Source: Crambe crambe
Taxonomy: Eukaryota; Porifera; Demospongiae; Poecilosclerida; Crambeidae
Direction: 5' to 3'
Assembly (NCBI GenBank): GCA_963924555.1
Contig: OZ004584.1
Location: 6,633,001-6,697,000, forward strand
DNA length: 64,000 bases
The position numbers and the translations under genes were made by a program. The notes beneath the pieces are model-generated. The model did not search any database. It saw only the letters and a list, made by a program, of their open reading frames with translations, and had not been told where the DNA came from. Position 1 is the stretch's first letter; each line of letters opens with the position of its first letter. This document shows positions 2,509 through 64,000 of the stretch, in pieces.

Positions 2509-4210
2509 TTATTGTTGAGCTCTCAATGCTTCCTCCTCTTTTCCCTCAAATGGAACCACATTTGGGTAAAATGTTGCATCAGGTCCAACTATTTTAACTC
2601 TCGGAGTTAAAGGAGGAATCTCAGCATAAACTGGCTATAATAGATACATGAGAGACAACGTTCTAAGAAAGTTCAGTTAGCTAATAGTCACCATCACCTC
2701 TGCTTTATCAACATCTTTAGTGACGGCATATGCACTATTTTCTTGAATGTGTATTTCTGGGTCATTTAGTCTGTCTTTGGCAGTGGTTATCACTTCAGAA
2801 GATCTTTTAGGCTATTAAGGATAATGAATTCATCATGAAGTATGACACACTATTTAAAATGAACTTTTTTCTGGAATAGACCAAAAAGGAAGACAGTGAT
2901 TGTTACTCTGAGGCTATACAGTTTCAATGTTCTTCATCAATAGTATAGCCATACCTCTTCTCTTTGAGCATCCTTAAGCTTGATAACTGTGTACGCACTG
3001 TTTTCATGAGTTCGTATCTCAAGGTTTATTACTTCATCAGATGATTTCTGGCCATGGTTCCTGCCTACATGTTATAGAATTAATGTGAGAGTGTTATAAC
3101 AGAATCCTCATGATAGTTATTATGAGAGAAACTATCAATTTATGGCAATCACTAACTGTCTAAAGAAGTATTATAATATGTAGTTACCACTTTTCACATG
3201 ATGTAACCAATAGCAACAGCAAAATGTTGATAGCAGTAGAATGATACTCATCACTGCATGGAGAGGTGACAAATTAATAACAGTGAGCAACAAGATTAAG
3301 TAATAATATTTACCAACACCCACAGATACTGCAATTACCACCTTGAAAGAAGAAGAGTCTACACATTATAGTGGTAAGTAAGTTGCAATAACTATATCAT
3401 AGCATCATGGTATAACAGCTGCTTAGCTACCAACTGTTGAAAAGCTTTTTTGTGTTATCATATAATTAGTTGGGTTGCTTTCACTTGGAAAGTACATCAC
3501 AAGAATAACATTAGATGAACTTCCACCATCAGTTTCCACATAAACAGTTAAGTGTAGTTGTTCACAGATGCATTGAAACATCTGCTACAGTTATTCTCAT
3601 CATTGTTCAGAATGAGGTACTGTAACTGATTTAAGCCAACTGAGCAGTTGCAATGAGTGCTATTGTCATAGCTAATGTGAACAGTTAATTCTTGGAAGCA
3701 TGCAGACGTCACCTGCAAGAGAATGAGTAGCTAGCATTTTAACTCTTTAGTTTTTAAACATATACCAAAGATATATTCAGCTCCAATTCTGAATTAAATT
3801 GTTGTTGTATTTGACCCGCACTAAGGAATATCCCTGAATAAAATTATAACAGTTAGTCACCTACATAATTATGTAGTACCCATTAGTTTCATTACCATCA
3901 TAAAATTCTACATTCCTTGGATCACTAGGAGCCCCTTGACCTACTACATTCACTGCTGTGACTATGAACTGATAGTGAAGCATCAGTCCAGAGTTGTTGG
4001 TAGGTATTGTGTAGTGAAGAGTCACAATGGAGCATCGTCCAAGGTGGTGAAGTGGAGTCCTCTCTTTCTCAGATACATTGTACACCTCCATACAGAATGT
4101 CATGTCTGGGTCAGTGTTAGGGAGGTCCAGGGAGAAGGGAGGTTGCCAAGTCAGGGTGATGGAGGAACAATTAGTGGAGATGTTGACTTCCTTAACTGCA
4201 TCTGATATCC
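2509..4210 (-). pseudogene. R1: class A receptor pseudogene lacking Ig exon
   Basis: Exons in coding order: FN3 3896-4210, linker 3766-3833, D3 3431-3712, transmembrane 3314-3358 and 3188-3253, tyrosine exons 2955-3064 and 2698-2811, last exon 2509-2634 (stop 2509-2511). The FN3 domain has the family core W-Q-P-P-F-S-L-D and N-T-D-P-D-M-T-F-C. The D3 exon carries a 5-bp insertion near 3550 relative to R2-R5, giving a frameshift and stop. No Ig or signal exon lies upstream, where the foldback element sits. The tail keeps S-A-Y-T-V-I, which fits the ITIM consensus, then S-A-Y-A-V-T and P-V-Y-A-E-I. With a broken D3 and no leader it is very probably a pseudogene. Confidence 0.8.
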
Positions 4211-4511
4211 CTATTAGAACAAGTGAATGCAAAAAATTTCTTCGAAATAAAAATGCGAAGTAGGGATGACCACAAATTTAGCACATAATAATTATTATAG
4301 CTATCATAACTGCAGCTTCATTATGAAAACCAAGTACTGCAGCATCGAAGCAGTATGGCCCAAAAATCTAGCTGGAATATGTATTATAACTGCATGCAAG
4401 AGAGTGAACTTAGTGAAGTGACCCTTACCCATCATCAAGTACAAGATACTATTCCTACTTCACTCCCATGATCAAGGGCCAAGGGAGTTGTAAAAGTATG
4501 AAGGAATGGAG

Positions 4512-6572: not shown

Positions 6573-6574
6573 CT

Positions 6575-7514: not shown

Positions 7515-7557
<43 letters not shown>

Positions 7558-7961: not shown

Positions 7962-10256
7962 TCAATGCTTCCTCCTCTCTTCTCCCAATGGAACCACATT
8001 GGAGTAAATTGTTGCATCAGGTCCAACTATTTCAAGTCTCGGAGTTAAAGGAGGAATCTCAGCATAAACTGGCTATTGAAACATAAAGAGAATGATAAAT
8101 TCAATTATCATAGCTGTGTAGGTATTAGTCTATCATCACCTCTACTTTACCAACATCTTTAGTAATGGCATATGCACTGTTTTCCTGAATGTGTATTTCT
8201 GGGTGATTTTGTCTATCTTGAGCGGTGGCCACCATTTCAGAAGATCTCTATAATGAATCATCAGAAAGTATGACTAACTTTGGCTTAAGATGATGTTATT
8301 TTTGTTAAGAAAGTATGCATGCATCCTTTCATCATGCCAATGGCAGCCATTTTGGTACACAATCCCCATAGAGCATAATACAAATTGTGCACCAAAATGG
8401 CCTCTGTTGGGATGCATAGTAAAAGGATACATTGTAAACACTCAGATCAACTGTAACTAGCTCCATTTGGGGCTAAATGGAAAGAAAGTAAAAATTGCTT
8501 TGAGTTCATCAGTAATTATAGCTAGCTAGTTCTTCTTGTAGCTATGGATACCTCTTCTCTTTGAGGATCCTTAAGCTTGATAACTGTGTACGCACTGTTT
8601 TCATGAGTTCGTATCTCAAGGTTTATTACTTCACCAGATGATTTTTGGCTATGGTTCCTGCCTGTGGGAGTGTTGTAACATAGCATAAGTGAATCATCAT
8701 GAATTAGAAAGTGCTATGTAGCTGTCATATTGATCAACTGTCTAAGCTGTAGTGATATAAATGTAGCTACCATTTTTCATGTGATGTAACCAATAGCAAC
8801 AGGAAAATGTTGATAGCAGTAGAATGAATGCTAATATGGTCACCACTGCATGGAAATATGATATTCATGATAACAATAACAGTGACACGATTCTACCATA
8901 ATATTTACCAATACCCACAGCAATTATCACATTCAAATACTCAAAGGAGGAGGAATCTATAGAATAGTATATGACATACATTAGTATATGACATACATTA
9001 GTCTATGGTAAGTTAATTATGATGACTAGTTATCAGAGCTACAGTTGCTTACTGATTATAGTCGAAATGATCTTTTGTGTTGTCATATTAGTTGGGTTGC
9101 TTTCACTTGGGAAGTACATCACAAGGATAACATTAGATAAACTTCCACCATCAGTTTCCACATAAACAGTATAGTTGTTCACAGATGTATTGAAACATCT
9201 GCTACAGTTATTCTCATCAATGTTCAGAATGAGGTACTGCAACTGATTCAAACCAACTGAGCAGATGCAATGAGTGCTATTGTCATGGTTAATGTGAACA
9301 GTTAATTCTTGGAAGCATACAGATGTCACCTGCAAGAGAATGAGTAGCTAGCATTTTAACTCTTTAGATTAAAAACATACCAAAGATATATTCAGCTCCA
9401 ATTCCGAATTAAATTGTTGTTGTATTTGACCTGCACTAAGGAATATCCCTGAATAAAATTATAACAGTTAGTCACCTACATAATTATGTAGTACCCATTA
9501 GCTTCATTACCATCATAAAATTCTACATTCCTTGGATCACTAGGAGTCCCTCGACCTACTACATTCACTGCTGTGACTATGAACTGATAGTGAAGCATCA
9601 GTCCAGAGTTGTTGGTAGGTATTGTGTAGTGAGGAGTCACAATGGAGCATCGTCCAAGGTGGTGCATTGGAGTCCTCTCTCCCTCAGATACATTGTACAC
9701 TTCCACACAGAATGTCATGTCTGGGTCAGTGTTAGGGATGTCCAGGGAGAAGGGAGGCTGCCAAGTCAGAGTGATCGAGGAACAGTTGATTGAAGTATCC
9801 ACTTCTCTCACTTCATCAAGCAATCCTAAAATATTATTATAAAAATAAACATTGGCAAAATAATTATAACTTTCCTTGTATCTGAAGATTATATATATCA
9901 CCAAGAAGACGTTGACTGGAGTCAAAATAGTTTACTCTTTCACATTGAACTCTGGAGTCATTATACATTTCTGAACAGTTTATATAAATTACTCTATTTT
10001 CTGTCACAACTCCTTCAAAGGTATCTGAGGATGAGTTGTTGATTTTCCATCGAATGACTAACCCACTTACTGGATCTGGGTCTAAACTACAGTTGAGTAC
10101 AATCATTTCATATAGGCCACAAATAACTCGTGATCCTGCGATGATAGTAAAAATAATTATGCTTGATGAATTCAGCTCACAGAAAATACCTTCAATTGCA
10201 CCTAAATTGACTAGAAGAAGTAGCATAAAGGCATATCCACTCATTTTAAGTAGCAA
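7962..10256 (-). CDS. R2: class A Ig-FN3 receptor with tyrosine-motif tail
   Basis: Exons: signal 10190-10256, Ig 9875-10135, FN3 9511-9825, linker 9381-9448, D3 9053-9329, membrane 8909-8956 and 8771-8845, tyrosine exons 8552-8661 and 8140-8247, last exon 7962-8072. They total 1440 nt, 479 residues, in frame. The leader M-L-L-L-L-V-N-L is hydrophobic. The Ig has Cys-Gly, a W-K-I-N core and paired cysteines, and ends L-Q-I-Q-G. D3 is rich in Cys and N-glycosylation sites. The tail has S-A-Y-T-V-I (ITIM consensus), S-A-Y-A-I-T and V-Y-A-E-I. The Ig exon must end CAAG before GAAAGT, a GA donor; the GT four bases on would shift the frame. It is a single-pass surface receptor by structure. Ligand and signalling partner are unknown; SH2-phosphatase binding is inferred from the motif. 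Confidence 0.8.
8320..8428. mobile_element. Small MITE in R2 intron
   Basis: Inverted ends TGCATCC...CCATTTTGGT and the complementary ACCAAAATGG...GGGATGCA enclose a short loop. The same element occupies the equivalent R5 intron at 17184-17280, so it predates their duplication. Confidence 0.7.
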
Positions 10257-11310: not shown

Positions 11311-13417
11311 CTAGTCACCACGTGCTTTTGTTGTTGAGCCCTCAAAATGTTTCCTCCTCTCTTCAACTCTCGGAATTAAAGGAGGAATCTCGGCATAAAC
11401 TGGCTATATGTAGAAATATGAGAGAAAATATTCAAGAAAAGAATTTGCTAATAGCAAGTCATCACCTCTACTTTACTGGCATCTTTAGTGACGGCATATG
11501 CACTGTTTTCTTGAATGTGTATTTCTGGGTTGTTGTGTCTAGAAGACATCTGTTATGATGAGAGGATAATGAATTCATCATTCCTTATGAAGTTGTTATG
11601 ATGTATTTTTTTTATGTGAATGTGATTTTTTTTCTGGAAAAGCATTGTTACATTCACATAACCATTTGGACATAAAAGAAAAAGTATTGATGTTTGTACG
11701 GAATTTCACTCCAAGGCTACAATTTCATAGACTATTGTATAGCTCAGCTTACCTCTTCTCTTTGAAGCTTGATAACTGTATATGCACTGTTTTCATGAGT
11801 TCGTATCTCAAGGTCTATTACTTCACCTGATGACTTTTGGCCATGGTTCCTGCCTGTGAAAGTGTTATAACATAGCACAAGTGAGAAACTGTTCAGTATA
11901 ATTATTATGAATACCACTTTTCATGTGATGTAACCAATAAAATGTTGATAGCAGTAGAAAGAACACTAACATTATGGTCATCACTACATGGAAATATTTA
12001 CAATGGCAACAATATCAGTGACACAATTCTATCATAACATTTACCAGATGCTGCAATTACCACATTCAAATGCTCAGAGTCTACAATAGTGAATGATACA
12101 AGTCAAGTTACAATAGCCAACTATCATACGTAGCAACAGATGCTTACTGATTGTTGAAAAGCTTTTTAGTGAAACTGTTGTCATATTAGTTGGGTTGTTC
12201 TCACTTGGGAAGTACATCACAAGGATAACATTAGATAAACTTCCACCATCAGTTTCCATGTAAACAGTATAGTTGTTTACAGATGCATTGAAACATCTGC
12301 TACAGTTATTCTCACTATTCAGAATAAGGTACTGTAAGCCAATAGCAACTTGTAATTGTACTGAGCAGTTGCAATGAGTGCTATTTTCATGGTTTATAAT
12401 GTGAACAGTTAATTCTTGGAAGCATACAGAAGTCACCTGAAAGAGAATGAATAGCTAGCATTTTAACCCTTTAGTCTTTTAAAAACATACCAAAGATATA
12501 TTCAGTTCCAATTCAGAATTAAATCGTTGCTGTATTTGATCCGCACTAAGGAATATCCCTGAATAAATTAATGATCATAATAACAGTTAGTCACCTACAT
12601 ACATACGTATGTAGTACCCATTAGTTTCATTACCATCATAAAATTCTACATTCCTTGGATCACTAGGAGCCCCTCGACCTACTACATTCACTGCTGTGAC
12701 TATGAACTGATAGTGAAGCATCAGTCCAGAGTTGTTGGTAGGTATTGTGTAGTGAGGAGTCACAATGGAGCATCGTCCAAGGTGGTGAAGTGGAGTCCTC
12801 TCTCCCTCTGATACGTTGTACACCTCCACACAGAATGTCATGTCTGGGTCAGTGTTAGTGATGTCCAGGGAGAAGGGAGGTTGCCAAGTCAAGGTGATGG
12901 AGGAACAGTTAATGGATACATTCACTTCTCTCACTTGATCTAATAGCCCTGTTAATAGTGATAGGTAGCCAAGACAACAATAACAAATAAACAAGAACTA
13001 CAACCACAACAACAACAACTAAGAACAATAGCTATATAATACAGCTGCTTTCCTTGTATTTGAACATAGAAAGCATCACCAGGAACATTAGGTACACTTG
13101 GATCAGTAACATGAACTTCTTCACACTGAACTGTGGAGTTATCTAATTCTTCAGTACAGTTTAGAGAGAATTTGGGTGTCTCGTGTTGCAGCAATTCCTT
13201 CATAAATCTCATTATTGATTGTCCATGTTATGACAGTTCCTGTGAGTGGCATGAAGTCCAAGGTACATTCAAATTCAGCTCGTTGATGTAGGCCACAAAT
13301 TATCACTGATACACCCTGCACTGTTTCATCACTAAAAAGGACCAGAAGATAGATCATTATATATATAGCTCTAGTATATCTCATCCTCCTTGTGATCAGC
13401 ACAGAAGAGCCCAGCAT
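11311..13417 (-). pseudogene. R3: class A receptor with frameshifted Ig exon
   Basis: Exons: leader plus Ig 13053-13417, FN3 12634-12948, linker 12491-12558, D3 12148-12436, membrane 12045-12080 and 11915-11983, tyrosine exons 11753-11853 and 11466-11549, last exon 11311-11403. The Ig exon is open in one frame up to A-A-T-R-D-T-Q and continues in another from F-S-L-N-C-T-E, so a one-base frameshift lies near 13168-13174. All later exons are intact. The second membrane exon lacks 9 bp relative to its sisters, in frame. The last exon has lost about 60 bp, ending V-Y-A-E-I-P-P-L-I-P-R then a new tail. The Ig-to-FN3 junction is CAAG before GAAAGC. One base error would explain the break, so it is either a recent pseudogene or a sequence error. 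Confidence 0.75.
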
Positions 13418-13909: not shown

Positions 13910-16015
13910 TCAATGCTTCCTCCTCTCTTCCCTCAATGGAACCACATTTGAGTAAAATGTTGCATCAGGTCCAACTATTTCAACTCTCGGAGTTAAAGGA
14001 GGAATCTCAGCATAAACTGGCTATGTGGAAACATGAACATTCAAAGAAATTCATTTAGCTAATAGTCACCATCACCTCTACTTTATCATCTTTAGTGACA
14101 GCATATGCACTGTTTTCTTGAATATGTATTTCTGGGTCATTTTGTCCATCTCGGGTAGTGGTTATCATTTCAGAAGATGTCTGCATGAAGATAATGAATT
14201 CATCATGAAGTATGAATTAAGATATGGTGGTCACTATTAGCTATAACTTTATTTCCTGAAATAGACCTTTGGATAAAAAATAAAGTAAGAAATTATAGTG
14301 ATTGTCGCTTTGAGGCTCCAATTTCAATGTTCTTCATCAATAGTTATAAACATGCACATGTACCTCTTCTCTTTGAGCATCCTTAAGCTTGATAACTGCA
14401 TACGCACTGTTTTCAAGAGTTTGTATTTCAGGGTTTATTACTTCATCAGATGATTTCTGGCCATGGTTCCTGCCTATATATATGTGATATATAGAATCAT
14501 GAGAATGTTATACGTAGATACATATGAGAGAAACTATAAATTTATGGCAATCACTAACCGTTACCACTTTTCACATGATGTAACCAATAGCAACAGCAAA
14601 ATATTGATAACAGTAGAATGAATACAAGCATGCTCATCACTGCATGGAAAGGTAGCAAATTAATAACAGTGAGCGACAAGATTTCACATAGTAATAATAT
14701 TTACCAACACCCACAGATACTGCAATTATCACATTCAAATGCTCGAAAGAAGAAGAGTCTACACATGATTGGTAAGTTTAACTGTCTTAACATCATAGCA
14801 CAACAGCTGCTTACCAACTGTTGAAAACCTTTTTTGTGTTATCTTATTAGTTGGGTTGTTTTCACTTGGGAAGTACATCACAAGGATAAAATTAGATAAA
14901 ATTCCACCATCAGTTTCCACATAAATAGTATAGTTGTTCACAGATGCATTGAAACATCTGCTACAGTTATCCTCATCAATGTTCAGAATGAGGTACTGCA
15001 ACCGATTCAAGTTAGTGGTTACTTGTGCTGGGCAGCTGCAGTATGTGCTATCATCATTGTAGTCAAAGTGAATAGTAAATTCTTGAAAGCATACAGATGT
15101 TACCTGAAATAATAATGAATACCATTTAAAATTACCATTAATATTATCACGATCACATACCAAAGATATATTCAGCTCCAATTCAGAATTAAACAGTTGT
15201 TGTATTTCTCCCTCAAAAATGAGTATCCCTGAATTAATTCAGCAATCATAATACGTACCGGCTAGCAGCTATTGTAGGTACCCATTAGTTTCATTACCAT
15301 CATAAAATGTTATATTCCTTGGATCACTAGGAGCTCCTCGACCTACTACATTCACTGCTGTGACTATGAACTGATAGTGAAGCATCAGTCCAGAGTTGTT
15401 GGTAGGTATTGTGTAATGAGGAGTCACAATGGAGCATCGTCCAAGGTGGTGAAATGGAGTCCTCTCTCCTTCAGATACATTGTACACCTCCACACAGAAT
15501 GTCATGTCTGGGTCAGTGTTAGTGATGTCCAGGGAGAAGGGAGGCTGCCAAGTCAGGATGATGGAAGAACAGTTAGTGGAGACTCTCAGATCACTAACTC
15601 TCTCTAAGTATCCTGAATAAAGCAGCTAATTCACAATAAAAATATAGCTACGTATATGCTTTCCTTGTATGTGAAGAATAAAGGGATTTCCATATAAACG
15701 AGTTGAGTTTGGCATTACAACACCAAAAGAAACACACTGGACTAATGAATTGTTTCGTCCAGCACTGCAGTATAGATGAAGAACACTTCCTGCAGATCTA
15801 TTTATCACATCTCCATCCACTCCATCTTTAATAGTGGCATTGTTGAGATGCCAATCAGTAAAAGCTTGCATAGGTATAATGGTACATCTGAACTCAGCTG
15901 TTTCATTTAGACCACATACCACCTCTGAGGTAACTTGTCCTGAGATGAATACAAACTGCAGTAGAGAAATAGAGGCAATGATAACTACTCTACTTCTTGA
16001 CATAGCTAGCAGCAA
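13910..16015 (-). CDS. R4: class A Ig-FN3 receptor with tyrosine-motif tail
   Basis: Exons: leader plus Ig 15664-16015, FN3 15298-15612, linker 15161-15228, D3 14815-15103, membrane 14705-14758 and 14565-14639, tyrosine exons 14364-14473 and 14076-14180, last exon 13910-14020. They total 1479 nt, 492 residues, in frame. The leader is V-V-I-I-A-S-I-S-L-L-Q-F-V-F-I and shares an exon with the Ig, unlike R2. The Ig (E-V-V-C-G-L-N-E-T-A-E-F-R-C) is closer to the class B Ig of R7-R9 than to its neighbours, suggesting exon shuffling. The tail has S-A-Y-A-V-I (ITIM consensus), S-A-Y-A-V-T and V-Y-A-E-I. The Ig exon ends CAAG before GAAAGC. Start ATG may be 16015 or 16003. Confidence 0.8.
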
Positions 16016-16852: not shown

Positions 16853-19577
16853 TCAATGCTTCCTCCTCTCTTCTCCCAGTGGAACCACATTGGAGTAAAA
16901 TGTTGCATCAGATGCAACTACTTCAACTCTCGGAGTTAAAGGAGGAATCTCAGCATAAACTGGCTATCGAAATATAGAGAACTTAATTCAATTATCGTAG
17001 CTATGTAGTATTAGTCTATCATCACCTCTACTTTACCAACATCTTTAGTAATGGCATATGCACTGTTTTCCTGAGCGTGTATTTCTGGGTGATTCTGTCT
17101 ATCTTGAGCAGTGGCTACCACTTCAGAAGATCTCTATAATGAAAGATCAATCATCAGAAAGCATGACTACACTTGTATAATTATACATCCATTCACCATG
17201 CCAATGGCAGCCATTTTAGTACACAATCTTCATAGAGCATAATACAAATTGTGCACCAAAATGGCCGCCATTGGGATGCAATACATTGTAAACACTCAGA
17301 TTAACTGTAACTAGCTCCATTTGGAGCTAAAAATTGCTTTGAGTTCATCAGTAATTATAGCTAGCTAGCTCCTTGCATAGATACCTCTTCTCTTTGAACA
17401 TCCTTAAGCTTGATAAATGTGTATGCACTGTTTTCATGAGTTTGTATCTCAAGGTTTATTATTTTACCAGATGACTTTTGGCCATGGTTCCTTCCTGTAG
17501 GATTGTTATATATAACATAGTATATTAAGTGAATCATCATGAATTTAACTGTCATATTGATCAATTGTCTAAGCTGCAGTGCAAGTTATAAATTATAAAT
17601 ACCTTTTTTCTCATGATGTAACCAATAGCAACAGCAAAATGTTGATAGCAGTAGAATGAATGCTAATATGGACACCACTAAATGGAGTATATGATAATGG
17701 TAACAATATCAGTGACATGATTCTACATTTACCAATACCAACAGCAATTATTACATTCAAATGTTCAAAGGAGTCTACAATAGAATAGTATATGACATAC
17801 ATGAGTCCATGGTAATTATAGCTACAGCTGCTTACTAATTATTGTTGAACTGTTTCTTTGTGTTGTCATATTAGTTGGGTTGCTTTCACTCGGGACGTAC
17901 ATCACAAGGATAACATTGGATAAACTTCCATCATCAGTTTCCACATAAACAGTATAGTTGTTTACAGATGCATTGAAACATCTGCTACAGTTATTCTCAT
18001 TGTTCAGAATGAGGTACTGTAACTGATTTAAACCAACTGAGCAGTTGCAATGAATGCTATTGTCATGGTTAATGTGAACAGTTAATTCTTGGAAGCAGAC
18101 AGACGTCACCTGCAAGAGACTGAATAGCTAGCATTTTTACCCTTTTGATAAGTTTTTACCAAAGATATATTCAGCTCCAATTCTGAATTAAATCGTTGTT
18201 GTATTTGACCCGCACTAAGGAATATCCCTGAATAAAGATAATGATCACTATGTATAGTCACCTACATACATTTATATACGTATGTAGTACCCATTAGTTT
18301 CATTACCATCATAAAATGTTACATTCCTTGGATCACTAGGAGCCCCTCGACCTACTACATTCACTGCTGTGACTATGAACTGATAGTGAAGCATCAGTCC
18401 AGAGTTGTTGGTAGGTATTGTGTAGTGAGGAGTCACAATGGAGCATTGTCCAAGGTGGTGAAGTGGAGTCCTCTCTCCCTCAGATACATTGTACACCTCC
18501 ACACAGAAGGTCATGTCTGGGTCAGTGTTAGGGATGTCCAGGGAGAAGGGAGGCTGCCAAGTCAGGGTGATGGAGGAACAGTTAATAGAAACATTCACTT
18601 CTCTCACTTTAGCAAGTAGTCCTGGAGGAATAAATCCACTATTAACAGTTTAATAATTATATGATAGCTAAATGAGTTAGCTTTCCTTGAATGTGGAGTG
18701 TAATTAAGTCACCATAAATGATACCAGAGCTTAAATTTCCTATATCACGTGCCATACACTGAACTGTAACATTTTCATTCTCTTCTGTACAGTTTATCTG
18801 AAATTCTTTAAATGATGTTTGCTGTCCAGTTCTTATTAGTGAGGTATTCATAATATTGGTGACAGTCCATAGAATAGAAGGTTGAATTAGAGATGCCGTA
18901 TTCAAGTTGCAATGAAATGCAGCTATTTGATATAAATCACACACCACTTCTACATAAGCATAGCATATTTCATCCAAAGCGCTACTGTATCATCGCCAAT
19001 ACCTTTTCCTTCCACTAACTTAATAAATACTAGCATACGTAAGAGCAAAGAAGTATCTTCCTGCCATAACTAACTATCGAAGCTCAAAGATAGATGTAGT
19101 TTAGAAAATAAAATGTGAATGATGTAACCAAAAATTAATTATTATTATACACCTTGTATTTGGATGTTGTATACATCTCCAAGAACATCTGGGTCACTTC
19201 GATTGAAGATATTTCGTTTCCTGCACAGAATTGTAGAGCCTTCAAATGTCTGAGTACAGTTCAGAATAAGCATTTGATTTCCAATTGTTGTATCAACTCC
19301 TTCAATTTGAGATGCTGAGACATCGTTGATCGTCCATTCTATTGCATGTAGACCCAGTGGGATGAAGTCCAAGGTACAGTTTAATACAACTTGTTGATGC
19401 AGACCACAAATTACCAATGATGCTATCACCATAATAAGACCAGTAATTTTAGCTAATAGCTAGCAGCTAATTTCATATAGGTAGCTAGCTACTTGAACTA
19501 TAAGCCATACCTTTACTGATGTCCACCACATTAATCAACATTAAAATGATTGCCGATGTGGTAGGACAGTCATCCAT
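16853..19577 (-). CDS. R5: class A receptor with two Ig domains
   Basis: Exons: signal 19511-19577, Ig1 19153-19422, Ig2 18686-18949, FN3 18307-18621, linker 18160-18227, D3 17836-18109, membrane 17733-17774 and 17603-17677, tyrosine exons 17385-17494 and 17026-17133, last exon 16853-16963. They total 1704 nt, 567 residues, in frame. The two Ig exons differ strongly in sequence. Ig1 ends I-Q-I-Q-G with a canonical CAAG|GTGTAT donor, while Ig2 ends at the homologous point with CAAG|GAAAGC. The tail has S-A-Y-T-F-I (ITIM consensus), S-A-Y-A-I-T and V-Y-A-E-I. The signal exon (I-I-L-M-L-I-N-V-V) is the least certain part. The 3' half and flank are nearest to R2. Confidence 0.75.
17184..17280. 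mobile_element. Small MITE in R5 intron
   Basis: Same inverted-repeat element as 8320-8428, in the equivalent intron. The arms are CCAATGGCAGCCATTTT and AAAATGGCCGCCATTGG. Confidence 0.7.
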
Positions 19578-42700: not shown

Positions 42701-42867
42701 GGTGTTGGTGCTAAGAGACATCTGAATTCAATTGTTTGATTCAGGCCGCAGACAACCTCATCACTCGAGAATGAGGTAGTTCGTCCTACGAGCTGAATCA
42801 CCGCCGTAGCTAAAATGATCCTATATTCACTTCTTGGCATCATTTCCCTCTGAATATCTCTCAGCAT
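39779..42867 (-). CDS. R9: Ig-FN3 receptor with tyrosine motifs and Death domain
   Basis: Exons: leader plus Ig 42477-42867, FN3 42079-42417, linker 41947-42017, D3 41277-41577, membrane 41161-41187 and 40878-40946, tyrosine exon 40556-40675, tail 40278-40374, Death 39779-40056. Ig and FN3 are almost the same as R7 and R8, but D3 is a distinct version (E-L-R-V-Y-I-H-I-I-A-Y). The membrane segment is V-L-S-I-M-V-L-I-L-S-L-V-G-A followed by K-K-K-K. Motifs: T-A-Y-A-V-V, P-S-Y-A-E-I and P-I-Y-L-N-I. The phase between 40878 and 40675 does not fit directly. A small exon near 40790-40825 (containing P-Y-R-L-K-C-S) could restore it, otherwise that junction is broken. The Ig donor is CAAG|GAAAGT. Confidence 0.75.
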
Positions 42868-50334: not shown

Positions 50335-50455
50335 ATCTAACACACTGGACCATTGAATCATTGCATCCAGCACTGCAGTATAGATGAAGAACAACTCTAT
50401 CTATCATATTTCCATCCACTCCATCTCTTAAAGTGGCATTTTAGTGAATTAACTA
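50335..50455 (-). pseudogene. Ig exon relic, R4 type
   Basis: Matches the R4 Ig exon (about 15730-15840) including the G-C-A-C-T-G-C-A-G-T-A-T-A-G region, then joins sequence like the R6 promoter region (23205-23250). A chimeric remnant with no open product. Confidence 0.6.
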
Positions 50456-50569
50456 CAGTAGGCAACTTGCTTTTACCGAAATTAGTTAGTAGAAGAGCAA
50501 TTCGTTTAGAGTTTAGCTAGTTCATACCCTGCACGTGCGCGTGCAACATTAACTGCTTACTCACATGCG

Positions 50570-51330
50570 CAGTTGACAGTCCGTTTGAAGTGAAACTCAA
50601 GACTTCAAGACATGTGACATTGCTTTCAATTTCATTTTCAAGATTTGTTTGCAAACTCACTCCAATGGGAACAATCTTATATCATGTAAAAATAATCAGA
50701 ACTGGTGGTAGCTACAGGGTGTATTCAAACATCTCCCTCCTTCATAGCTATAATTAGCTATAGATTGCTCTGTGTTGGCATAGTTTAAACTTTGAGGGAA
50801 CTACGTCATATAGCTCAGTATGATATCACTGTGAGAGGAACGTGAGAGGGTTTCTCTATAGATTAATCAATCATCATGAGTAATAAGAGCTATACCTCAC
50901 TACTCAAAATATATAGCTGGGTGAAGCTTGTGGTACGGGGTCATCTTGAGTATATGCATGCAAGCTATGCAAGTAGCTAGATCCATTCCCCAAATAGCTA
51001 GCTATAAAAGCAACCATGAGTGTATACATACCTAATAATAACGACAACACGTTTCAACAAGACATTTCATGAAGCTTATTCAATCTCAAAGTCAAAACTC
51101 TTTCAGTATGTACAAAAACATGTTTCACCAATAGTTGATGAAAAAATAATAGCTAGCTACTTTGCTTCAATCTCCAAGTTATCCATCACTGGGTTAGGTG
51201 GGTCATCAGTGGGTATCTTATCTTGCATGGGTTATGGGACAAGGTGTAGAGAAAAAATTGACAATATCTCATGAATCAGATCTTAGAGCTACACAGCAAC
51301 AACAATAACAAGCAGAAAGATAAAGGCCAT
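50570..51330 (-). pseudogene. Class B receptor debris, second copy
   Basis: About 50575-50690 is a Death-exon relic and about 50770-50960 a tail-exon relic, in the same order as 26160-26640. No frame stays open. Confidence 0.6.
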
Positions 51331-51874: not shown

Positions 51875-52622
51875 TTAGTCACATGAAAAATATTTTCTGG
51901 ATAAATAATTAGCCACTTCGTATTCTTCCATATTTTTCAAGGCATCGGTAATATCAGCCAGATTATGAGAGTTAATGGTGAAAAATAATTCAACTGTGGC
52001 TTCCAAGCATGCTTCATTAGTGTCATCTTTGGAGAATTTAGGAATATTATCTGCAACAATTCCTAATTTAGTGGCAAACTCCCTCCACTTGCGAGCAATT
52101 GGTGAAAGATCATTCAACAGGTTAACAACAGAAATTCTTGCACTATTTTGATCCATTTCTAGTTAGCTACACTATAATTTCAAACCTGGTTTCAGTTGAA
52201 TAATTGATGTTGTGTTCTCCTCCAATGGAATCATGAATACATCATTGGGTGTGGTTATTTCAGTTGGTGTTGAAAGAGTGATCTCCCCAATGTCTTCATA
52301 GGGATGATCAGGCTAGAAGTACAGAGAATAATAATTAGCCAGCTCTCTAGCTTGTAGCTACCTCATCATTTTTGATCACAGCATATGCACTATTCTGATG
52401 TGTATTTATCTCAGTAGCTGATGGTGCAGGTAAATCATGCTGACTGGCTGGAAATTCAGTAGACCTCTGTATAGGAGTATTAGCAACAACATTATTAACG
52501 ACAACAAAAACTGCATAGATTCAACCCATTAACTACCTTTCCTTTCCTTTTGTAATGGAACCAAAGGCAGAGACATAATGATGCACTTGATAGCAGCAGA
52601 ATAACCACTGTGATGCTCCATA
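51875..52622 (-). pseudogene. R10: truncated class B receptor (tail and Death only)
   Basis: Exons: second membrane exon 52537 to about 52622, tyrosine exon 52362-52466, tail 52186-52312, Death 51875-52158. All are close to R7/R12 and in frame: S-A-Y-A-V-I, H-P-Y-E-D-I and the full Death domain. Homology stops inside the membrane exon (about 52622) and no ectodomain exons follow, so the gene has lost its 5' half. It could still be transcribed as a cytosolic Death protein if a new start exists; none is evident. Confidence 0.75.
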
Positions 52623-53336
52623 TTATTATGAGTAGATCTGTAGCTGCATCCATAACTGTTTTCATTCATTTAACAATTGGCGGGAAGTCGATCAGCCAAT
52701 TCTCTATAATTAGCTGAACTTGAAAAGGTTTGGTAATACACTACAGGAGCTACTCCCCCAAAGCAGCATATACGTCCTCCATTAGCTACTGCACTATAAT
52801 CTGAAGCTGTAGGGATTCAATTTGTTGGCTGGATATAGCTAACAATAGATTGATCCCATTTCCACCCTTCATCTCTACCCTTGTTTCCTTACTTTTTTGA
52901 GCAATTAATGGTCATCCCTAATCTGGAAACCTTCTTGCATATAAGGAAGACAATCATTTATGTGTGGGTGCAACATTAATGAAAGATAACATTGTGTCAC
53001 TGATATACGTACTAGATAGCCTTATAGTGTGCAGAACAGTATAATTAAAAAGGTTTTAGGGACTGAAAGTGAAAGGATGACATTAAAATAATGTGGGCAC
53101 CCACAATTTATGAATTCGAAATGTCCAGTTTTGCAATCTATTTCCTGCAGTAAAAAATCATTAACTGACCAATTGAAGTTATAGTGATACTGTTTTCAGG
53201 TGCTGGGAATTGGGGGGAGGGGAGTGTCATAGAGAATGCAAAAACTGCTTATTATTATAATATCAGGATAGATTTTGTATCCGTGAAAGATATCCACTAG
53301 CTAACTCCCACCCATTAAAGATTCTCACCATGTGTG
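52623..53336. other. Spacer between R10 and R11
   Basis: No gene was seen. From about 52930 it matches the R1 3' flank (2090-2508). Confidence 0.5.
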
Positions 53337-54489
53337 TTATTGTTGAGCTCTCAATGCTTCCTCTTCTCTTCCCTCAAATGGAACTACATTTGAGTAAAAT
53401 GTTGCATCAGGTCCAACTCTCGGAGTTAAAGGAGGAATCTCAGCATAAACTGGCTATAATAGATATATGAGAGACAAAGTTCTAAAAAAGTTCAGTTAGC
53501 TAATAGTCACCATCACCTCTACTTTACCAACATCTTTATGGACAGCATATGCACTGTTTTCTTGAATGTGTATTTCTGGGTCGTTTTGTCTGTCTTTGGC
53601 AGTGGTTATCACTTCTGAAGATCTCTTAGGCTATTAAGGATAAATGCTTAAAATGAACTTTCTTCTGAAATAGACCTTTGGATCAAAAAGGAAGACAATA
53701 AAAATCAGTGATTGTCGCTATGAGGCTACAATTTCAATGTTCTTCATCAATAGTATAGCCATGTACCTCTTCTCTTTGAGCATCCTTAAGCTTGATAACT
53801 GTGTATGCACTGTTTTCGTGAGTTCATATCTCAAGGTTTATTACTTCATCAGATGATTTTTGGCCATGTATAGAATTAAAGTGAGAGTGTTAGAATCCTC
53901 ATGATAGCTATTATGAGAGCAACTATCAATTTATGGCAATCACTAACTGTCTAAGGAAGTATTATAATAGTTACCACTCTTCACATGATGTAACCAATAT
54001 CAACAGCAAAATGTTGATAGCAGTAGAATGAATACAAGCATGCTCATCACTGTATGTAATAAATTAATAACAGTGAGAGACAAGATTTTGTATGTAATAA
54101 TATTTACCAACACCCACAGATACTGCAATTACCACATTCAAATACTCGAAAGAAGAAGAATCTACACATTAATGGTAAGTAAGTTACAATAGCACAACAG
54201 CTGCTTACCAACTGTTGAGAATTCTATTTGTGTTATCTTATTAGTTGGGTTACTTTCACTTGAGAAGTACATCACAAGAATAACATTAGATAAACTTCCA
54301 CCATCAGTTTCCACATAAACAGTGTAGTTGCTCACAGATACATTGAAACATCTGCTGCAATTATTCTCATCACTATTCAGAATGAGGTACTGCAACCGAT
54401 TCAAGTCAGTGGTAACTTGTGCTGGGAAGCTGCAGTGAGTGTTGTCATCATCGTAGTCAAAGTGAATAGTAAATTCATAAAGATGTTAC
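53337..54489 (-). pseudogene. R11: truncated class A receptor
   Basis: Exons: D3 54209-54489, membrane 54108-54161 and 53975-54049, tyrosine exons 53767 to about 53868 and 53517-53630, last exon 53337-53453. The D3 start lacks 8 bp relative to R4 (near 54476), shifting the frame after V-T-S. The first tyrosine exon has lost its 5' end with the splice acceptor. Linker, FN3 and Ig exons are absent, replaced by the 54505-54650 repeat. The tail still shows S-A-Y-T-V-I, S-A-Y-A-V-x and V-Y-A-E-I. Nearest relative is R1. Confidence 0.75.
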
Positions 54490-57304: not shown

Positions 57305-60300
57305 TTAGTCGCATGAAAGATATTTTCTCGATAAATAATTAGCCACTTCGTATTCTTCCATGTTTTTCAATGCATCAGTGATATCAGCCAAATTATGAGA
57401 GTTAATGGTGAAAAATAATTCGACTGTGGCTTCCAAGCATGCTTCATTAGTGTCATCTTTGGAAAATTTAGGAATATTATCTACAACAATTCCTAATTTA
57501 GTGGCAAACTCCCTCCACTTGCGAGCAATTGGTGAAAGATCATTCAACAGGTTAACAACAGAAATTCTTGCACTTTTGTGATCTATTTCTGTAAAAATCA
57601 ATAGATATATAGCTCCAAACAGCATAGCCATTATAGCCCACCTGGTTTTGGTTGAATAATTGATGTTGTGTTCTCCTCCAATGGAATCATGAGTACATTA
57701 TTGGGTGTGGTTATTTCAGTTGGAGTTGAAAGAGTAATCTCCCCAATATCTTCATAGGGATGATCAGGCTAGAAGTACAGAGAATAATAATTAGCCAGCT
57801 CTCTAGCTTGTAGCTACCTCATCATCTTTGATCACAGCATATGCACTATTCTGATGTGTATTTATCTCAGTAGCTGATGGTGCAGGTAGATCATGCTGAC
57901 TGGCTGGAAATTCAGTAGACCTCTGTTATAGGAGTATCAGGCAACAACATTAATGACAACAAAAACTGCATAGATTCAACCCATTAGCTACCTTTCCTTT
58001 CCTCTTGTAATGGAACCAAAGGCAGAAACATAATGATGCACTTGATAGCAGCAGAATAACAACTGTGATGCTCAATACTGCAACATTCATTATTAAGATA
58101 ATACTTAAAGTGTAGCTCCAACTGTGTATGTTACCTATCATTGTTGTAATTATAGCATCTGTATTAGAAGGAATACTAGTAGAAGAGTCTATAATAATAA
58201 TAAAAAATTTATAGTTATATAGCTAACTTGTTTGTGAGATCACCATATGAGTAGATCTGTAACTATTTACAATCTGTCACAATAAGATACAGTTCCACTT
58301 TCAGTTTTCATATAAATAGTGTAATTGTTTACAGATGCATCAAGACATCTGCTGCAGTTTTAGATACTCGTGCCATTTAAAATGAGGAAAATGTTGCTGA
58401 TTCAAATCAGGGGATACTTGTACTGCACTGAGCAGCTGCATGCCTAGCCCTATAGCTATAGGTGCCATGCATCATTATGATGGGCTGAGACACCACCACA
58501 ATTTGGGGGGATGGGAGCTGACAATTACAACACATTGATTTTATCCATGGTCTTAATTGGGAGCTAGCTAGTTAATATTTCCTAAATTTCATAGCTATAG
58601 CACACAATATGAGGACTAGCAGAAAGATTAGGGATTTTACCTGAAGTTGAAGTTGATGTAATGATTGCAGAGCTAATGCTAATGCTAGTTGGTTCAAGTT
58701 GAGTCATATTTTCACATTTTTCAGTTGGGATAATGAAGAGGTGATTGGACACAACCTCATTATCCATATATTCGATGTATATGGTATAATTTGTGGATGA
58801 AAAAAGACAACCACAGTTGTCACTGTGGAACTCAAATCCAGTGACATTCATGTCATTTAGTGAGCAGCAGCAGCAATTTGTTTCATTGTGATGTGCTTTG
58901 ATATGTACAGTGACTCCTGAGGCCAGTGAGTAGGGAGAGATCTCCTGTGCATGCATTGATCAGAAAATAATAGGGTTATAGCTATCTATTAGCTACTAGG
59001 GCAATGATCAACATTCAGTTGACAGCAAGCGAGCAAGCAAACGATTTTCATTTGCTGTTGAGTATCTGTAGCAATGTGCAGCATTTGACAGTGAGCAATT
59101 AAAGTAGCTGATAGGCTTCAGTGCTTGATATTGCTAAGAGTCATGTAGCTATGTGGTGGCAGGCAGCTGCATACATGCTTCCTCAAAGCACTTAGATAAG
59201 CCTAGTGCCTACAAGCCGCTTAGATAAGCCTCTTGTGCCTGCTGCCCAAAAGGCTGTAGAAATGTTGAGCTGATAGTTCATTTGTGCTTTGCTGTTGTGT
59301 TATGTAGCTAAGTGGCAGGCAGCTGCATGCATAGAAAGCTAAATACTTACCACAAAGCACTTAGATATGTTTAGCGCCTACAATCCACTTAGATAAGCCT
59401 AGCCCTACTATCCACCATGCTATATACAAAGCGATGTAGAAATCAATCAAGCAAATACAACTGGAGCATGCGCATAAATGCACGCGCAGGGGCGCTACTA
59501 TTGCACGACACGTACGTACGTACGTACGTACGCCTGGGGCATTTTGGAGTGTAGACATAGATCTAGATATATATATATTTAAAATTTCAATGAGTCATGA
59601 CCTGAGAGTCAGCTCACTCGCTTCGCTCGCTCGCTGCAATTATTAGCTATAGCTCAGTTAATTGTAATTGCGTAAAGGGATGCAAAATTATAGCAACTAG
59701 CTATAAGTTGCTTTCAGTTGGCTATAGCTACAAAGTAGGACTATTTTTAAATAACATGGCCTCTGTATAGCTACATACGATTCATTATGCTGCAAAAAAA
59801 AAAAAGAACCAATTTCATCTGAGTTACAGTTTGCAACAACTGTGACTGCATGTTATTCTAAATTCTCTTCTATAATAATAATATAGCAATACCTTACAAT
59901 AGGCACACAGTTCCCTCCCCCCCCCAGTAATAGCTACTATAACATCAATAGCTACTTCCAGCTAAATGGAATCAATATACTATTATTAAACAGCTGATTA
60001 TTATTGCATGGTTATGTTAATTTTGACATTATATGTACAATGTATTAGAGATTTTGTTTAAAACTTACTGGTAATAGATTTACTTCAATATGAGACTTGC
60101 AAATCTTGACTGTTGCATTGAGAAGAAAACCTTAATACATGTAGCACATATACATATAGACATAGCTAATATAAAATACACCAGTGGTTCACATTGGCCT
60201 ATTATTGCATGCAATGCGCTACCTTGCCCCTTAAAAATAACTTACAAGGAAGAAGTGTTGCATTTATGGGTGCACTAGGAGCTCCTAGACCAACTACATT

Positions 60301-61015
60301 CATTGCTGTAACAATGAACTGATACTGATTGAGGTCACTGATAATCATGGAGTATATGTACTCAGGATTGATATTCATAGTGTACTGATGTGCATCAGTG
60401 CAATGATCAGCAGAATCATTAAGTTGAATAGTTCTTCCCCCTGTGATTTCATATACATCCACACAGAATGTCATGTCTGGGTCAGTGTTAGTGATATCCA
60501 GGGAGAAAGGAGGTTGCCAAGTCAGGGTGATGGACCAGGGGGTACAGTTGATGGAGACCTCTAGGTCTTTAACACTCTCTAGTAATCCTGCATGGGATGA
60601 TCCTATAATAACATGATTTACTAGCTAAACTTGTATACTTTCCTTGTATGCGAAGAGTATGTAGATTACCGAAAGCAGGAGGTTCAGTCAAGGAGAGAAG
60701 ACTAACTCTAACACACTGAACTAGTGAGTTATTCAGTGAAGTACTGCAGTCTAGGAATAGCAAAGGAAGTCTTGATGATAAATTTGACCTGGCTCCTTCA
60801 ACACTGATAGAGGAGACATTGTTGATTTTCCATTCAAAGCCATAAAGTCCTCTAGGGTTCCCTGGTGGTGTTGGTGCTAAGAGACATCTGAATTCAATTG
60901 TTTGATTCAGGCCACAGACAACCTCATCACTCGAGAATGAGGTAGTTCGTCCTACGAGCTGAATCACTGCTGTAGCTAAAATGATGCTAAACTTCTTGCT
61001 GCTACTTATTGACAT
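57305..61015 (-). CDS. R12: Ig-FN3 receptor with ITIM and Death domain (R7 twin)
   Basis: Exons: leader plus Ig 60643-61015, FN3 60246-60587, linker 60069-60130, D3 58641-58944, membrane 58135-58188 and 57992-58077, tyrosine exon 57818-57922, tail 57642-57768, Death 57305-57588. They total 1737 nt, 578 residues, the same exon lengths as R7. D3 and the membrane exons read the same as R7 at the protein level. Differences are concentrated in the Death exon start (E-I-D-H-K-S for E-M-D-Q-K-S) and single residues elsewhere. Motifs: S-A-Y-A-V-I and H-P-Y-E-D-I. The Ig donor is again CAAG|GAAAGT. Open throughout. Either a recent duplicate or a second haplotype placed in tandem. Confidence 0.82.
58275..58455 (-). 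pseudogene. Relic class A D3 exon inside R12
   Basis: Counterpart of 28505-28690, with the same decay, so it predates the segmental duplication. Confidence 0.6.
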
Positions 61016-62400: not shown

Positions 62401-62635
62401 CAAATCACTTGTAATAACATGTAATTTTCTGTAACTAGTAACTATCATAGTTCTAGCTACAGTAAGCAATTTACTAATACATATATACTGTAGCAAAGAC
62501 AATAATACACCATGCATTTTTTTTGTAGAATACTGTGTTTGAAATCATAACTTACAATAAGCGTAGACTATGGCAAATTGCTAGCTATATTAACTAACTG
62601 ACTGTGCTGATGCAGAGTATTGTATTTATTATTGG

Positions 62636-64000
62636 TCAGCTTATTGAGTACTTTGATTTCAAATTATCGGCCACTTTCATTTCACTGATGTTCTCTAGAG
62701 CTTCAATGATACCCTCCAGTTTGTTTCCAGGACGTTCAAAGTAAAACTCCAATGTGACTTCAAGGCATGTGACATTGCTTTCATTGTTGGTATAAATTTC
62801 ATCTTCAAGGTCTTCATCGATTCCAATTTGTTTTGCAAACTCACTCCATTTGTCAGCGATGGGAATGAGATCTTCAATAACATCTGCAGCAGTTGAAGGC
62901 TTTGGTACAATTACTGTAATATAAATAACAATAATGAGCATATGTACATATAGCTAAGTTTTCATAAACATCTGCAAGGTATTCTAAACACCCCCCTCTC
63001 CTCTTTGTAGCTCATAAACAAAGAGTATAGCTACCCCATTTTAATTATTAATAATCATGCAAGACTGCAAGGCTCAACTTGTAGCCTTATTTTCTTTTCT
63101 TCATTGTGGTAGCAATGTATACTTGGCTAGCTACTAGCCATTACTTTTAGCTTGCTTTGTTGGAATCTGTGGTGGCACATCAAGTTTCAACTTTGAAGGA
63201 ACTACATCTGAGTAGACCACTTTTTCTGGTGCTATGATCCCAACAATCGGAGATGAACGCAAGAGGTTTAGTTGAGCATATGTTGCACTCTATAGTATGA
63301 ATCATTGAATCATGCATCACCATTAGTCAATATTGCTAGCTCTACCTCACTGATCAAAGAATCTTTGGTTGTATGACACACTTTTTCATTGCTAGGTGAA
63401 GCATGTGGTACAGGGTCATCGTGGGTATGCACATTCTGCAAAATGAAGTAAAACCATAACTAACAATTCAGTCCCAAAGAGCCACTATGTATGTAGCTAT
63501 AGCTACATAAGCCAAATATTATTAATTGTAATGACAACAAATACATAGCTATATATTTGATGAAAAACACTTTGCTTCAACCTCCAAGTTAGGAACTCTT
63601 TTGGTAGCATAATTTAGTGGATCAGTGGGTAACTGGATGAGGGGAATATGTTGACATCTGCAGTCACTAGCACCTTCTGCTTCATGAACTGGAGTTTGTA
63701 GCTGTGGCAGGGTGGGGGGAGAAGAATGTTATTGATGGCTCACATGTGTTAGTTGAAATCATCCACTCACGGCAATTGGATATACGTACTTTGCCTGTTG
63801 CCATTGATCGAAAATAAGTAATTTGTAAGTAGCTAGTTCACATGCACAAATGCACAGTTGTTTGTATTCACAATCACTAGCTAAATATCAGTAATGAAGG
63901 AGTATGAAAAGCTTTCTTTGTATGTTGAACTTTACATATAGGTACATGTAGCTATATACCTCATTCCCAGTATTTTCAGTGAGTACATCTGAGCTTGGAG
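62636..64000 (-). CDS. R13: 3' exons of an R8-like receptor, cut by the window edge
   Basis: Exons seen: Death 62636-62913, tail 63145-63289, 63346-63435, 63582-63701 and the start of the next (63960 on). The Death domain matches R8 residue for residue. The tail keeps A-T-Y-A-Q-L, V-I-Y-S-D-V (ITIM consensus) and L-N-Y-A-T-K. All visible junctions are canonical and in frame, so the gene may be intact beyond the edge. Confidence 0.75.

What the first reader, a model, noticed from the sequence alone, without database searches (positions are those of the whole stretch)
2509..64000. Tandem receptor cluster: Ig-FN3-D3-TM with ITIM-like and Death-domain tails
At least thirteen related minus-strand units in about 60 kb share a modular exon design. 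Combining an Ig ectodomain, several ITIM-consensus tyrosines and a C-terminal Death domain in one chain is not a design I recognise from known families. A cluster with pseudogenes, truncations and recent duplicates resembles the evolution of vertebrate KIR/LILR-type or invertebrate allorecognition loci. Function is inference.
Basis: partly seen in the sequence, partly recalled or inferred. Interest (0 to 1): 0.9.

Follow-up and report, generated by a model that had tools for sequence, protein, structure and literature searches.

The report
Sponge Ig–ITIM–Death receptor gene cluster
This stretch of what is probably a sponge chromosome holds part of a large family of cell-surface receptor genes that join antibody-like heads to tails carrying immune-type switch motifs and, in about half of them, a cell-death signalling domain; whether they sense self or microbes is not yet known.

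Summary
The window lies inside a cluster of about 0.55 Mb (outliers to 0.75 Mb) with 103 FN3 matches of this family. Eight of ten FN3-bearing window units give open spliced models: Ig (one or two), FN3, an unassigned domain "D3", one TM and a tyrosine-motif tail. Five of the eight end in a Death domain; three do not. Six tails hold 12 ITIM/ITSM matches against 1.7 expected (0 of 10,000 shuffles), while their ectodomains show no excess (10 against 9.3). Death rests on Pfam exon matches, Ig on weak profile matches only.

Beyond the finding: three receptors with 100% identical Ig and 96–99% identical FN3 carry very different tails (11–29% alike), while receptors with similar stalks carry Ig heads about 35% alike. 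Heads and tails have apparently recombined as modules. The genome also holds a SHP-type phosphatase gene and a FADD-like candidate. An immune or allorecognition role is inference: there were no expression, ligand or polymorphism data.

The parts
57305..61015 (-). U60, open gene model, 590 aa: Ig-FN3-D3-TM, SAYAVI + PYEDI tail, Death
   Evidence: spliced model, 8 exons, no internal stop
39779..42867 (-). U42, open gene model, 571 aa: same Ig/FN3 head as U60/U38, different D3/TM, TAYAVV/YAEI/YLNI tail, Death
   Evidence: spliced model, 9 exons; segment identities
35667..39407 (-). U38, open gene model, 670 aa: same head as U60, long tail with LVYDDI, ATYAQL, VIYSDV, Death
   Evidence: spliced model, 13 exons; segment identities
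27532..31274 (-). U30, open gene model, 590 aa, near copy of U60
   Evidence: spliced model; 94.6% DNA identity over 5.4 kb to the U60 region
19785..23202 (-). U22, open gene model, 656 aa: Ig-FN3-D3-TM, TQYSLV/IAYSTI/VKYAQL/VIYSDI tail, Death
   Evidence: spliced model, 12 exons; motifs; Death exon below Pfam cut-off (E 0.048)
16853..19432 (-). U18, open two-Ig gene model, tyrosine-motif tail (SAYTFI, TFYSNV), no Death; true start uncertain
   Evidence: spliced model, 548 aa; motifs
13910..16003 (-). U15, open gene model, 488 aa, one Ig, ITIM/ITSM tail, no Death
   Evidence: spliced model
7962..10244 (-). U9, open gene model, 475 aa, one Ig, ITIM/ITSM tail, no Death
   Evidence: spliced model
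11311..13309 (-). U12, ITIM-type unit with a frameshifted Ig exon (pseudogene or assembly indel); approximate ends
2500..4196 (-). U3, damaged ITIM-type unit: FN3, D3 with frameshift, TM and tail pieces, no Ig found (approximate ends)
51890..54476 (-). truncated unit: D3 (5' end altered), TM, tail exons, Death; no Ig or FN3 found
62639..62899 (-). Death exon, identical in protein to U38's, of the next gene upstream (mostly outside the window)
60246..60587 (-). FN3 exon of U60 (example module)
   Evidence: Pfam fn3 E 3.5e-6 on 60241-60573
58641..58944 (-). D3 exon of U60, unassigned cysteine-containing domain
   Evidence: no Pfam assignment of 58699-58941; no usable match for the D3 set
57305..57588 (-). 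Death exon of U60
   Evidence: Pfam Death E 3.7e-6 on 57320-57571
26152..26297 (-). relic Death exon
50339..50660 (-). relic Ig and Death pieces

Best explanation
A tandem-expanded family of single-pass surface receptors that works as a recognition array. The outer Ig head(s) bind ligands; FN3 and D3 form the stalk; tail tyrosines, once phosphorylated, recruit SH2 proteins such as the SHP-type phosphatase that this genome encodes; in about half of the copies a C-terminal Death domain can recruit a Death adaptor such as the FADD-like candidate. Heads and tails recombine as modules, so one head sits on three different Death tails, and diverse heads sit on one ITIM-only kind of tail. I take the most likely role to be immune-type recognition of self, non-self or microbes, with tyrosine signalling tuning or opposing Death-domain output. 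Shown: architecture and open frames (as DNA-based models), motif enrichment, discordant module similarity, cluster size, presence of candidate partners. Inferred: transcription, ligand binding, phosphorylation, recruitment, the inhibitory sign, and the immune role.
For: Open spliced models for 8 of 10 FN3-bearing units. 103 FN3 matches at C6:6.58-7.34 Mb, 47 with a Death match downstream within 8 kb and 56 without (from the rows). Death by Pfam: 2 of 4 exons above cut-off, 9 of 9 at E up to 1. Ig by profile: 11 of 11 PDB rows are Ig-superfamily proteins. ITIM+ITSM: 12 in six tails against a shuffle mean of 1.67, 0 of 10,000; control: ectodomains 10 against 9.33, Death parts 0 against 0.89. Head/tail exchange: U60, U38 and U42 have Ig 100% and FN3 96-99% identical in protein, tails 11-29% (U60-U38 and U38-U42 no better than shuffled), Death 36-55%. 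In 93 gene pairs with FN3 at least 85% identical (3 near-identical pairs dropped), 43 have Ig below 50%; in those the median dS is 0.13 in FN3 and 1.16 in Ig. SH2-SH2-phosphatase order at C18:6540942-6539084; partial DED then partial Death match at C1:54484-53929.
Against: No expression, polymorphism, ligand or biochemical data. The tails are related to each other in part, so the 12 motifs are not 12 independent events. Ig dN/dS is above 1 in only one of five head groups with comparable pairs (3 pairs, not independent); in two of five it is below that of FN3. YxxI/L/V tyrosines also fit endocytic sorting and activating SH2 docking, and several tail tyrosines fit no motif. The main TM of the six models tested carries no charged residue, so no classical activating partner chain is indicated. 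D3 fold unknown. Full-length Death scores are below Pfam's cut-off. No relatives among 5.8 billion proteins for the one query tried, so no comparative support.
Confidence: 0.55

Rival explanations
1. A non-immune adhesion, guidance or growth-factor-type receptor family (UNC5/p75NTR/DCC-like dependence receptors) that happened to expand in tandem.
For: Ig and FN3 ectodomains and Death tails occur in guidance and trophic receptors (recalled); the Death profile's best PDB rows are p75NTR, four of nine rows up to E=1, best E 0.074, the other five bacterial HipB proteins; the best Ig profile row is Contactin-2.
Against: About 100 copies with exchanged heads and tails and several damaged copies would be unusual for developmental receptors (my judgement); no TSP1 or ZU5 row in the three Death-bearing models scanned by Pfam; the PDB matches are weak.
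Confidence: 0.2
2. Receptors whose tail tyrosines are endocytic (YxxPhi) or activating SH2 docking sites, and whose Death domain is a scaffold for NF-kB-type signalling; no inhibitory logic. This rival concerns the signal, and can hold together with a recognition role.
For: Motifs such as YAEI, YEDI, YSNV and YLNI also fit Src- or Grb2-type SH2 sites or AP2 binding (motifs recalled; contexts).
Against: The strict ITIM pattern, which includes the residue two before the tyrosine, is itself enriched: 8 against 1.43 expected, 0 of 10,000 shuffles; a SHP-type gene is present.
Confidence: 0.35
3. Copy number and near-identity partly reflect assembly artefact (haplotypes laid in tandem) and the array is largely decaying repeat DNA.
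For: Near-identical stretches recur, for instance FN3 matches repeated at an offset near 100.9 kb (rows); U12 and U3 damaged, several relics.
Against: 8 of 10 window units are open across 8-13 exons; head and tail classes differ far beyond what I would expect of alleles.
Confidence: 0.1

Closest known systems
Botryllus schlosseri fester co-receptors (FcoR) in the fuhc locus (PMC12065747, abstract and passages seen)
   Same: Ig-superfamily, TM, long tail with ITIM, hemITAM or core YxxI/L/V motifs, several genes in one locus
   Different: V-Ig, sushi and two C2-Ig domains instead of Ig-FN3-D3; 'death domain' has 0 occurrences in that text; polymorphism described there, untested here
Hydractinia Alr family (mentioned in passages of PMC12065747; else recalled)
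   Same: invertebrate candidate allorecognition genes bearing ITIM/ITAM motifs
   Different: different ectodomain; no Death domain that I recall
Vertebrate KIR/LILR/FcR-like paired receptors (recalled; PMC2413239 seen as a search listing only)
   Same: tandem IgSF genes, related heads on different tails, ITIMs, pseudogenes
   Different: no FN3-D3 stalk and no Death that I recall; short activating forms with a charged TM residue were not seen here
Sponge Ig-TIR receptors and the Dysidea avara gene with Ig and CARD domains (PMC6208332 and PMC12909245, passages)
   Same: sponge Ig-bearing genes joined to an innate signalling domain
   Different: TIR or CARD instead of Death; few genes (6 Ig-TIR in D. 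avara per PMC12909245); 'itim' has 0 occurrences in PMC6208332
TNFR-type death receptors such as p75NTR, Fas and TRAIL-R
   Same: TM proteins with a Death domain in the tail; TRAIL-R associates with SHP-1 (PMC10967194, passages)
   Different: cysteine-rich repeats (recalled) instead of Ig/FN3; PMC10967194 says TRAIL-R contains no ITIMs and loses SHP-1 when its Death domain is removed

Membership tests
ITIM-bearing IgSF immunoreceptors (as a kind) | Ig-fold ectodomain | tested here: met
   by profile only: six heads hit only Ig-superfamily proteins, 11 of 11 rows, best E 0.022 (I did not check that each matched stretch is an Ig domain); Pfam gives no Ig hit for the main heads
ITIM-bearing IgSF immunoreceptors (as a kind) | cytoplasmic ITIM/ITSM tyrosines | tested here: met
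   motif level only: 12 in six tails, shuffle mean 1.67; ectodomain control 10 against 9.33
ITIM-bearing IgSF immunoreceptors (as a kind) | phosphatase recruitment and inhibition | not testable with these tools
   only the presence of an SH2-SH2-PTP gene was shown
KIR/LILR paired receptors | short-tailed activating partners with a charged TM residue | tested here: not met
   no charged residue in the main TM of any of six models; the other units of the cluster were not examined
KIR/LILR paired receptors | sequence kinship with vertebrate members | tested here: inconclusive
   U22 found no relative among 5.8 billion proteins (one query); PDB profile rows are weak
TNFR death receptors | C-terminal Death domain | tested here: met
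   2 of 4 exons above Pfam's cut-off, 9 of 9 at E up to 1; full-length U60 and U38 just below cut-off, U22 without a row
TNFR death receptors | TNFR cysteine-rich repeats | tested here: not met
   no such Pfam row in the four full-length models scanned
UNC5 receptors | TSP1 and ZU5 domains | tested here: not met
   no such Pfam row in the Death-bearing models U60, U38, U22
Sponge Ig-TIR receptors | TIR tail | tested here: not met
   no TIR row in the four full-length models scanned
Allorecognition receptors | high polymorphism and control of fusion or rejection | not tested
   one assembly only, no population data

The most novel reading that the evidence does not exclude
A sponge self/non-self recognition system built as a head-and-tail kit: blocks of neighbouring receptors share one Ig head but carry three different ITIM-plus-Death tails, while other receptors put diverse heads on one ITIM-only kind of tail, so that tyrosine signals gate a Death-domain effector in the same chain. 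This would give sponges candidate receptors for allorecognition or microbe sensing and an early fusion of inhibitory-receptor and death-receptor logic.
Probability: 0.25. Interest if true: 0.92.

Novelty: new variant of a known kind. Interest (0 to 1): 0.7.

Why it matters
Invertebrate Ig receptors with ITIM/ITAM motifs at recognition loci are described for an ascidian and a cnidarian (PMC12065747, passages). A family of about a hundred copies in a sponge, about half with a Death domain in the same tail, would extend that logic to another early animal branch and join two signalling systems that are normally on separate receptors. The same review says that the candidate allorecognition proteins of sponges, cnidarians and ascidians are not conserved; this family gives specific, testable candidates. 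The sets with one head and several tails allow a clean experiment, because ligand binding is held constant while the signalling part changes.

Tried and rejected
D3 fold: AlphaFold on an alignment of eight window D3 exons gave mean pLDDT 39, so no fold search was run; profile comparison with FN3 and Ig gave nothing, Pfam and PDB nothing usable. I considered a second FN3 or cytokine-receptor-like domain (IL3Ra_N, E 0.02, below cut-off); unproven. U22's D3 is not clearly alike to those of U60, U38 and U42 pairwise (4-10 of 100 shuffles score as well); it links to them through U9 and U15.

GA-AG intron idea: 28 of 28 intact FN3-proximal Ig exons in 262 kb read CAAG|GAAAG at the boundary where 7 of 7 other intact Ig exons read GT, which suggested a conserved non-canonical donor. 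I then found an in-frame GT-AG alternative for all 28, for 25 of them 27 bases upstream; the three U1 genes found all have a standard 5' end. Left open, for RNA-seq to settle. The eight gene models use the GA site; their other 63 of 71 introns are GT-AG, but I chose those sites to be so.

A first comparison of TM and motif regions of U60, U38, U42 and U22 at the DNA level took in introns for some genes; I do not use those two rows and replaced them by protein segments.

Relatives elsewhere: U22 against 5.8 billion proteins, none; FN3 against viral contigs, none. The collections may hold no sponges, so this says little about other sponges.

Selection: Ig dN/dS summed over pairs is 0.54, 0.39, 1.32, 0.36 and 0.34 in five head groups, against 0.24, 0.66, 0.41, 0.19 and 0.41 for FN3; no clear sign of positive selection, and pairs are not independent.

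Print: I found no paper that describes Ig, ITIM and Death in one receptor by the searches (open-access library only; most hits seen as listings, not opened).
Full report
What the window is. The window is G000:C6:6633001-6697000 of a 143.1 Mb genome in 119 contigs. The five contig lengths that I compared (C1 9,566,324; C6 9,083,326; C16 7,061,294; C18 6,567,827; C19 6,535,638) match chromosomes 1, 4, 13, 15 and 16 of the demosponge Crambe crambe to two decimals (9.57, 9.08, 7.06, 6.57, 6.54 Mb; PMC12166358, passages; that assembly has 143.20 Mb in 124 scaffolds, so it is not identical to the one held). Diacarnus erythraeanus shares a 9.08 Mb chromosome, but 7.06 does not occur in its paper. I take the organism to be C. 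crambe or very near kin; this is inference.

The observation. Translated searches with module peptides place 10 FN3 exons, 11 D3 exons, about a dozen Ig exons or pieces and 7 Death exons on the minus strand in the stated order, plus relics. Spliced models give open frames for eight genes: U60 (590 aa), U42 (571), U38 (670), U22 (656), U15 (488), U9 (475), U18 (548, two Ig) and U30 (590). Two of ten FN3 units are damaged: U12 in its Ig exon, and U3, where no Ig was found and D3 has a frameshift, and which lies beside a reverse-transcriptase ORF. One unit at 51.9-54.5 kb lacks Ig and FN3, and the Death exon at 62.6 kb ends a gene that lies mostly to the right of the window. The models rest on DNA alone.

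Domains. Pfam finds FN3 in the U60 exon (E 3.5e-6) and Death in four of four window exons at E up to 1, two of them above the cut-off; in a set of nine Death exons, three of them from neighbouring loci, nine of nine match Death at E up to 1 (best 2.7e-6). In full-length models scores fall under the cut-offs: Death 21.7 against 22.6 for U60 and U38, no Death row for U22, and FN3 below its cut-off in all four models. The genome-wide Death search scored 150 of 965 candidates and none of its rows lies in this cluster, so these are divergent Death domains. The six main Ig heads give no Pfam Ig hit, but their profile hits only Ig-superfamily proteins in the PDB (11 rows up to E=1, best 0.022); with the divergent window Ig at 46727-47011 added, 21 of 21 rows are Ig-superfamily and the best E is 7e-4. 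The Death profile's best PDB rows are the p75NTR Death domain (E 0.074; four of nine rows p75NTR, the other five bacterial HipB proteins). D3 could not be assigned: AlphaFold pLDDT 39, no profile match. Each of the six models tested has one strong hydrophobic segment before the tail with no charge in it; a hydrophobic N-terminal segment passed the same threshold in two of six.

Tails. In the six tails tested, 8 strict ITIM and 4 ITSM matches stand against a shuffle mean of 1.67 for both together; 0 of 10,000 shuffles reach 12; without U9, 10 against 1.46. As a control, the ectodomains with TM of the same six hold 10 matches against 9.33 expected and the four Death parts 0 against 0.89. Examples are VKYAQL, VIYSDI, IAYSTI and TQYSLV in U22. 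Some tyrosines do not fit (YENT in U42, YATK in U38, YSPD in U22, SAYAVT in U15). The tails are partly related, so the motifs are not independent events. By eye, the last exon of Death-less genes (PVYAEIPP...FYSNVVP, then stop) resembles U42's exon before Death (PSYAEIPP...IYLNIIP), so Death was perhaps lost from, or added to, one scaffold; I cannot tell which.

Scale. An own-genome search with the FN3 exon scored 150 places (184 candidates); 103 lie at C6:6.58-7.34 Mb, 99 of them between 6.586 and 7.137 Mb. The Death search gave 59 places, 54 of them there; the Ig head search 94, of which 89 there by my count of the rows; the D3b search 24, of which 22 there. Of the 103 FN3 matches, 47 have a Death match downstream on the same strand within 8 kb and before the next FN3, and 56 do not. 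These counts include partial and damaged copies, and a few of the 47 distances (356, 581, 7100 bases) are not convincing. The tool calls its counts of large families lower bounds.

Mosaic evolution. In protein, U60, U38 and U42 have identical Ig heads and FN3 96-99% identical; U60 and U38 also share D3 (90%) while U42's D3 is 38-42% like theirs; the TM regions are 19-28% alike, the tails 11-29% (U60-U38 and U38-U42 no better than shuffled sequence; U60-U42 weakly better) and the Death domains 36-55%. At the DNA level Ig is 98-99% and FN3 98-100% identical between the three. The same head, identical over 95 residues in six copies and 99% in two more, recurs in three places: the window (6.663-6.676 Mb), the window's right edge (6.693-6.703 Mb) and 7.111-7.115 Mb. 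By their D3 and Death matches the first two places hold all three tail types in the same order, the third holds two of the three. Conversely, the ITIM-only units U9, U12, U15 and U18 have FN3 at 90-95% but Ig at 57-62% DNA identity, with similar TM and tail exons except in U12's last two; U15 and U9 tails are 81% and their Ig heads 34% identical in protein. In 262 contiguous kb (about a third of the region), 26 gene sets with intact Ig, FN3 and D3 form 6 head groups; among 93 pairs with FN3 at least 85% identical (3 near-identical pairs dropped), 43 have Ig below 50% identity, and there the median dS is 0.13 for FN3 against 1.16 for Ig, saturated pairs left out of the latter. Exon exchange or gene conversion, not simple duplication of whole genes, best explains such discordance. 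Signs of positive selection are weak (see Tried and rejected).

Partners. The best phosphatase match in the genome (C18:6539084-6539980, E 5.4e-64) is preceded on the same strand by two SH2 matches; the translated pieces show an SH2 stretch GSYLVR and the phosphatase signature HCSAGIGRTG (motif knowledge recalled): an SHP-type gene. A partial DED match followed by a partial Death match lies at C1:54484-53929, a FADD-like candidate. Their presence makes the proposed mechanism possible, not proven.

How it most likely works. Ligand on the Ig head clusters receptors; kinases phosphorylate tail tyrosines; SHP-type phosphatases (or other SH2 proteins) bind; in Death-bearing forms a Death adaptor can join. 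Having both in one chain suggests that tyrosine signalling gates or tunes Death output; the sign is unknown. An immune or allorecognition role is favoured by expansion, module exchange and the ITIM theme seen in Botryllus and Hydractinia candidates (PMC12065747, passages), but nothing here tests it.

Novelty. Ig receptors with ITIM-type tails at recognition loci are known for other invertebrates, and Ig-TIR and Ig+CARD genes for sponges (PMC6208332, PMC12909245, passages). I found no description of Ig, ITIM and Death in one chain in the searches, which cover open-access papers only and were mostly seen as listings. PMC10967194 (passages) reports that TRAIL-R binds SHP-1 through its Death domain and contains no ITIM, a functional parallel. 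I file this as a new variant of ITIM-bearing Ig-superfamily receptors, not as a KIR/LILR, TNFR or UNC5 member.

Noticed in passing
window 60643/60587, 42477/42417, 39038/38982, 30902/30846, 22878/22820, 18686/18621, 15664/15612, 9875/9825: The short Ig-to-FN3 intron reads CAAG|GAAAG...AG| in all eight models; 28 of 28 such intact exons in 262 kb have GA there and 7 of 7 other intact Ig exons have GT. In-frame GT-AG alternatives exist for all 28, so a GA-AG intron is not proven.
   Followed up: partly
window 4512-6572 (-): Gag-pol-like ORF (Ty3-like by my reading) with reverse transcriptase (Pfam RVT_1 E 5.5e-29 on 4512-5600) just upstream of the damaged unit U3.
   Followed up: partly
window 44011-44972 (-) and 33508-34110 (-): Transposase ORFs (DDE_3 E 1.3e-28; winged HTH E 3.4e-8) and an unassigned ORF with a weak helix-turn-helix match.
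   Followed up: partly
window 46727-47011 (-): A divergent Ig exon (Pfam I-set E 0.035, below cut-off) followed by a GT, not linked to any FN3 unit.
   Followed up: no
G000 C16:1.25-1.47 Mb, C18:5.25-5.59 Mb, C15:1.39-1.69 Mb: Other dense groups of Death-domain matches, not examined.
   Followed up: no
G000 C12:0.07-0.38 and 2.5-3.2 Mb, C9:2.6-3.4 Mb, C13:3.6-3.9 Mb; C5:1.41-1.66 Mb: Dense groups of tyrosine-phosphatase matches and, on C5, of SH2 matches.
   Followed up: no
G000 C6:7.72-7.86 Mb and C13:1.63-1.90 Mb: More distant FN3 matches in further groups.
   Followed up: no
G000 C6:6.836-6.863 and 6.937-6.964 Mb: FN3 matches repeat at an offset near 100.9 kb (rows): a recent large duplication or a haplotype laid in tandem.
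   Followed up: no
window 1788-1977: Tandem array of a 10-base unit ACTTGCGGAG, about 19 copies.
   Followed up: no
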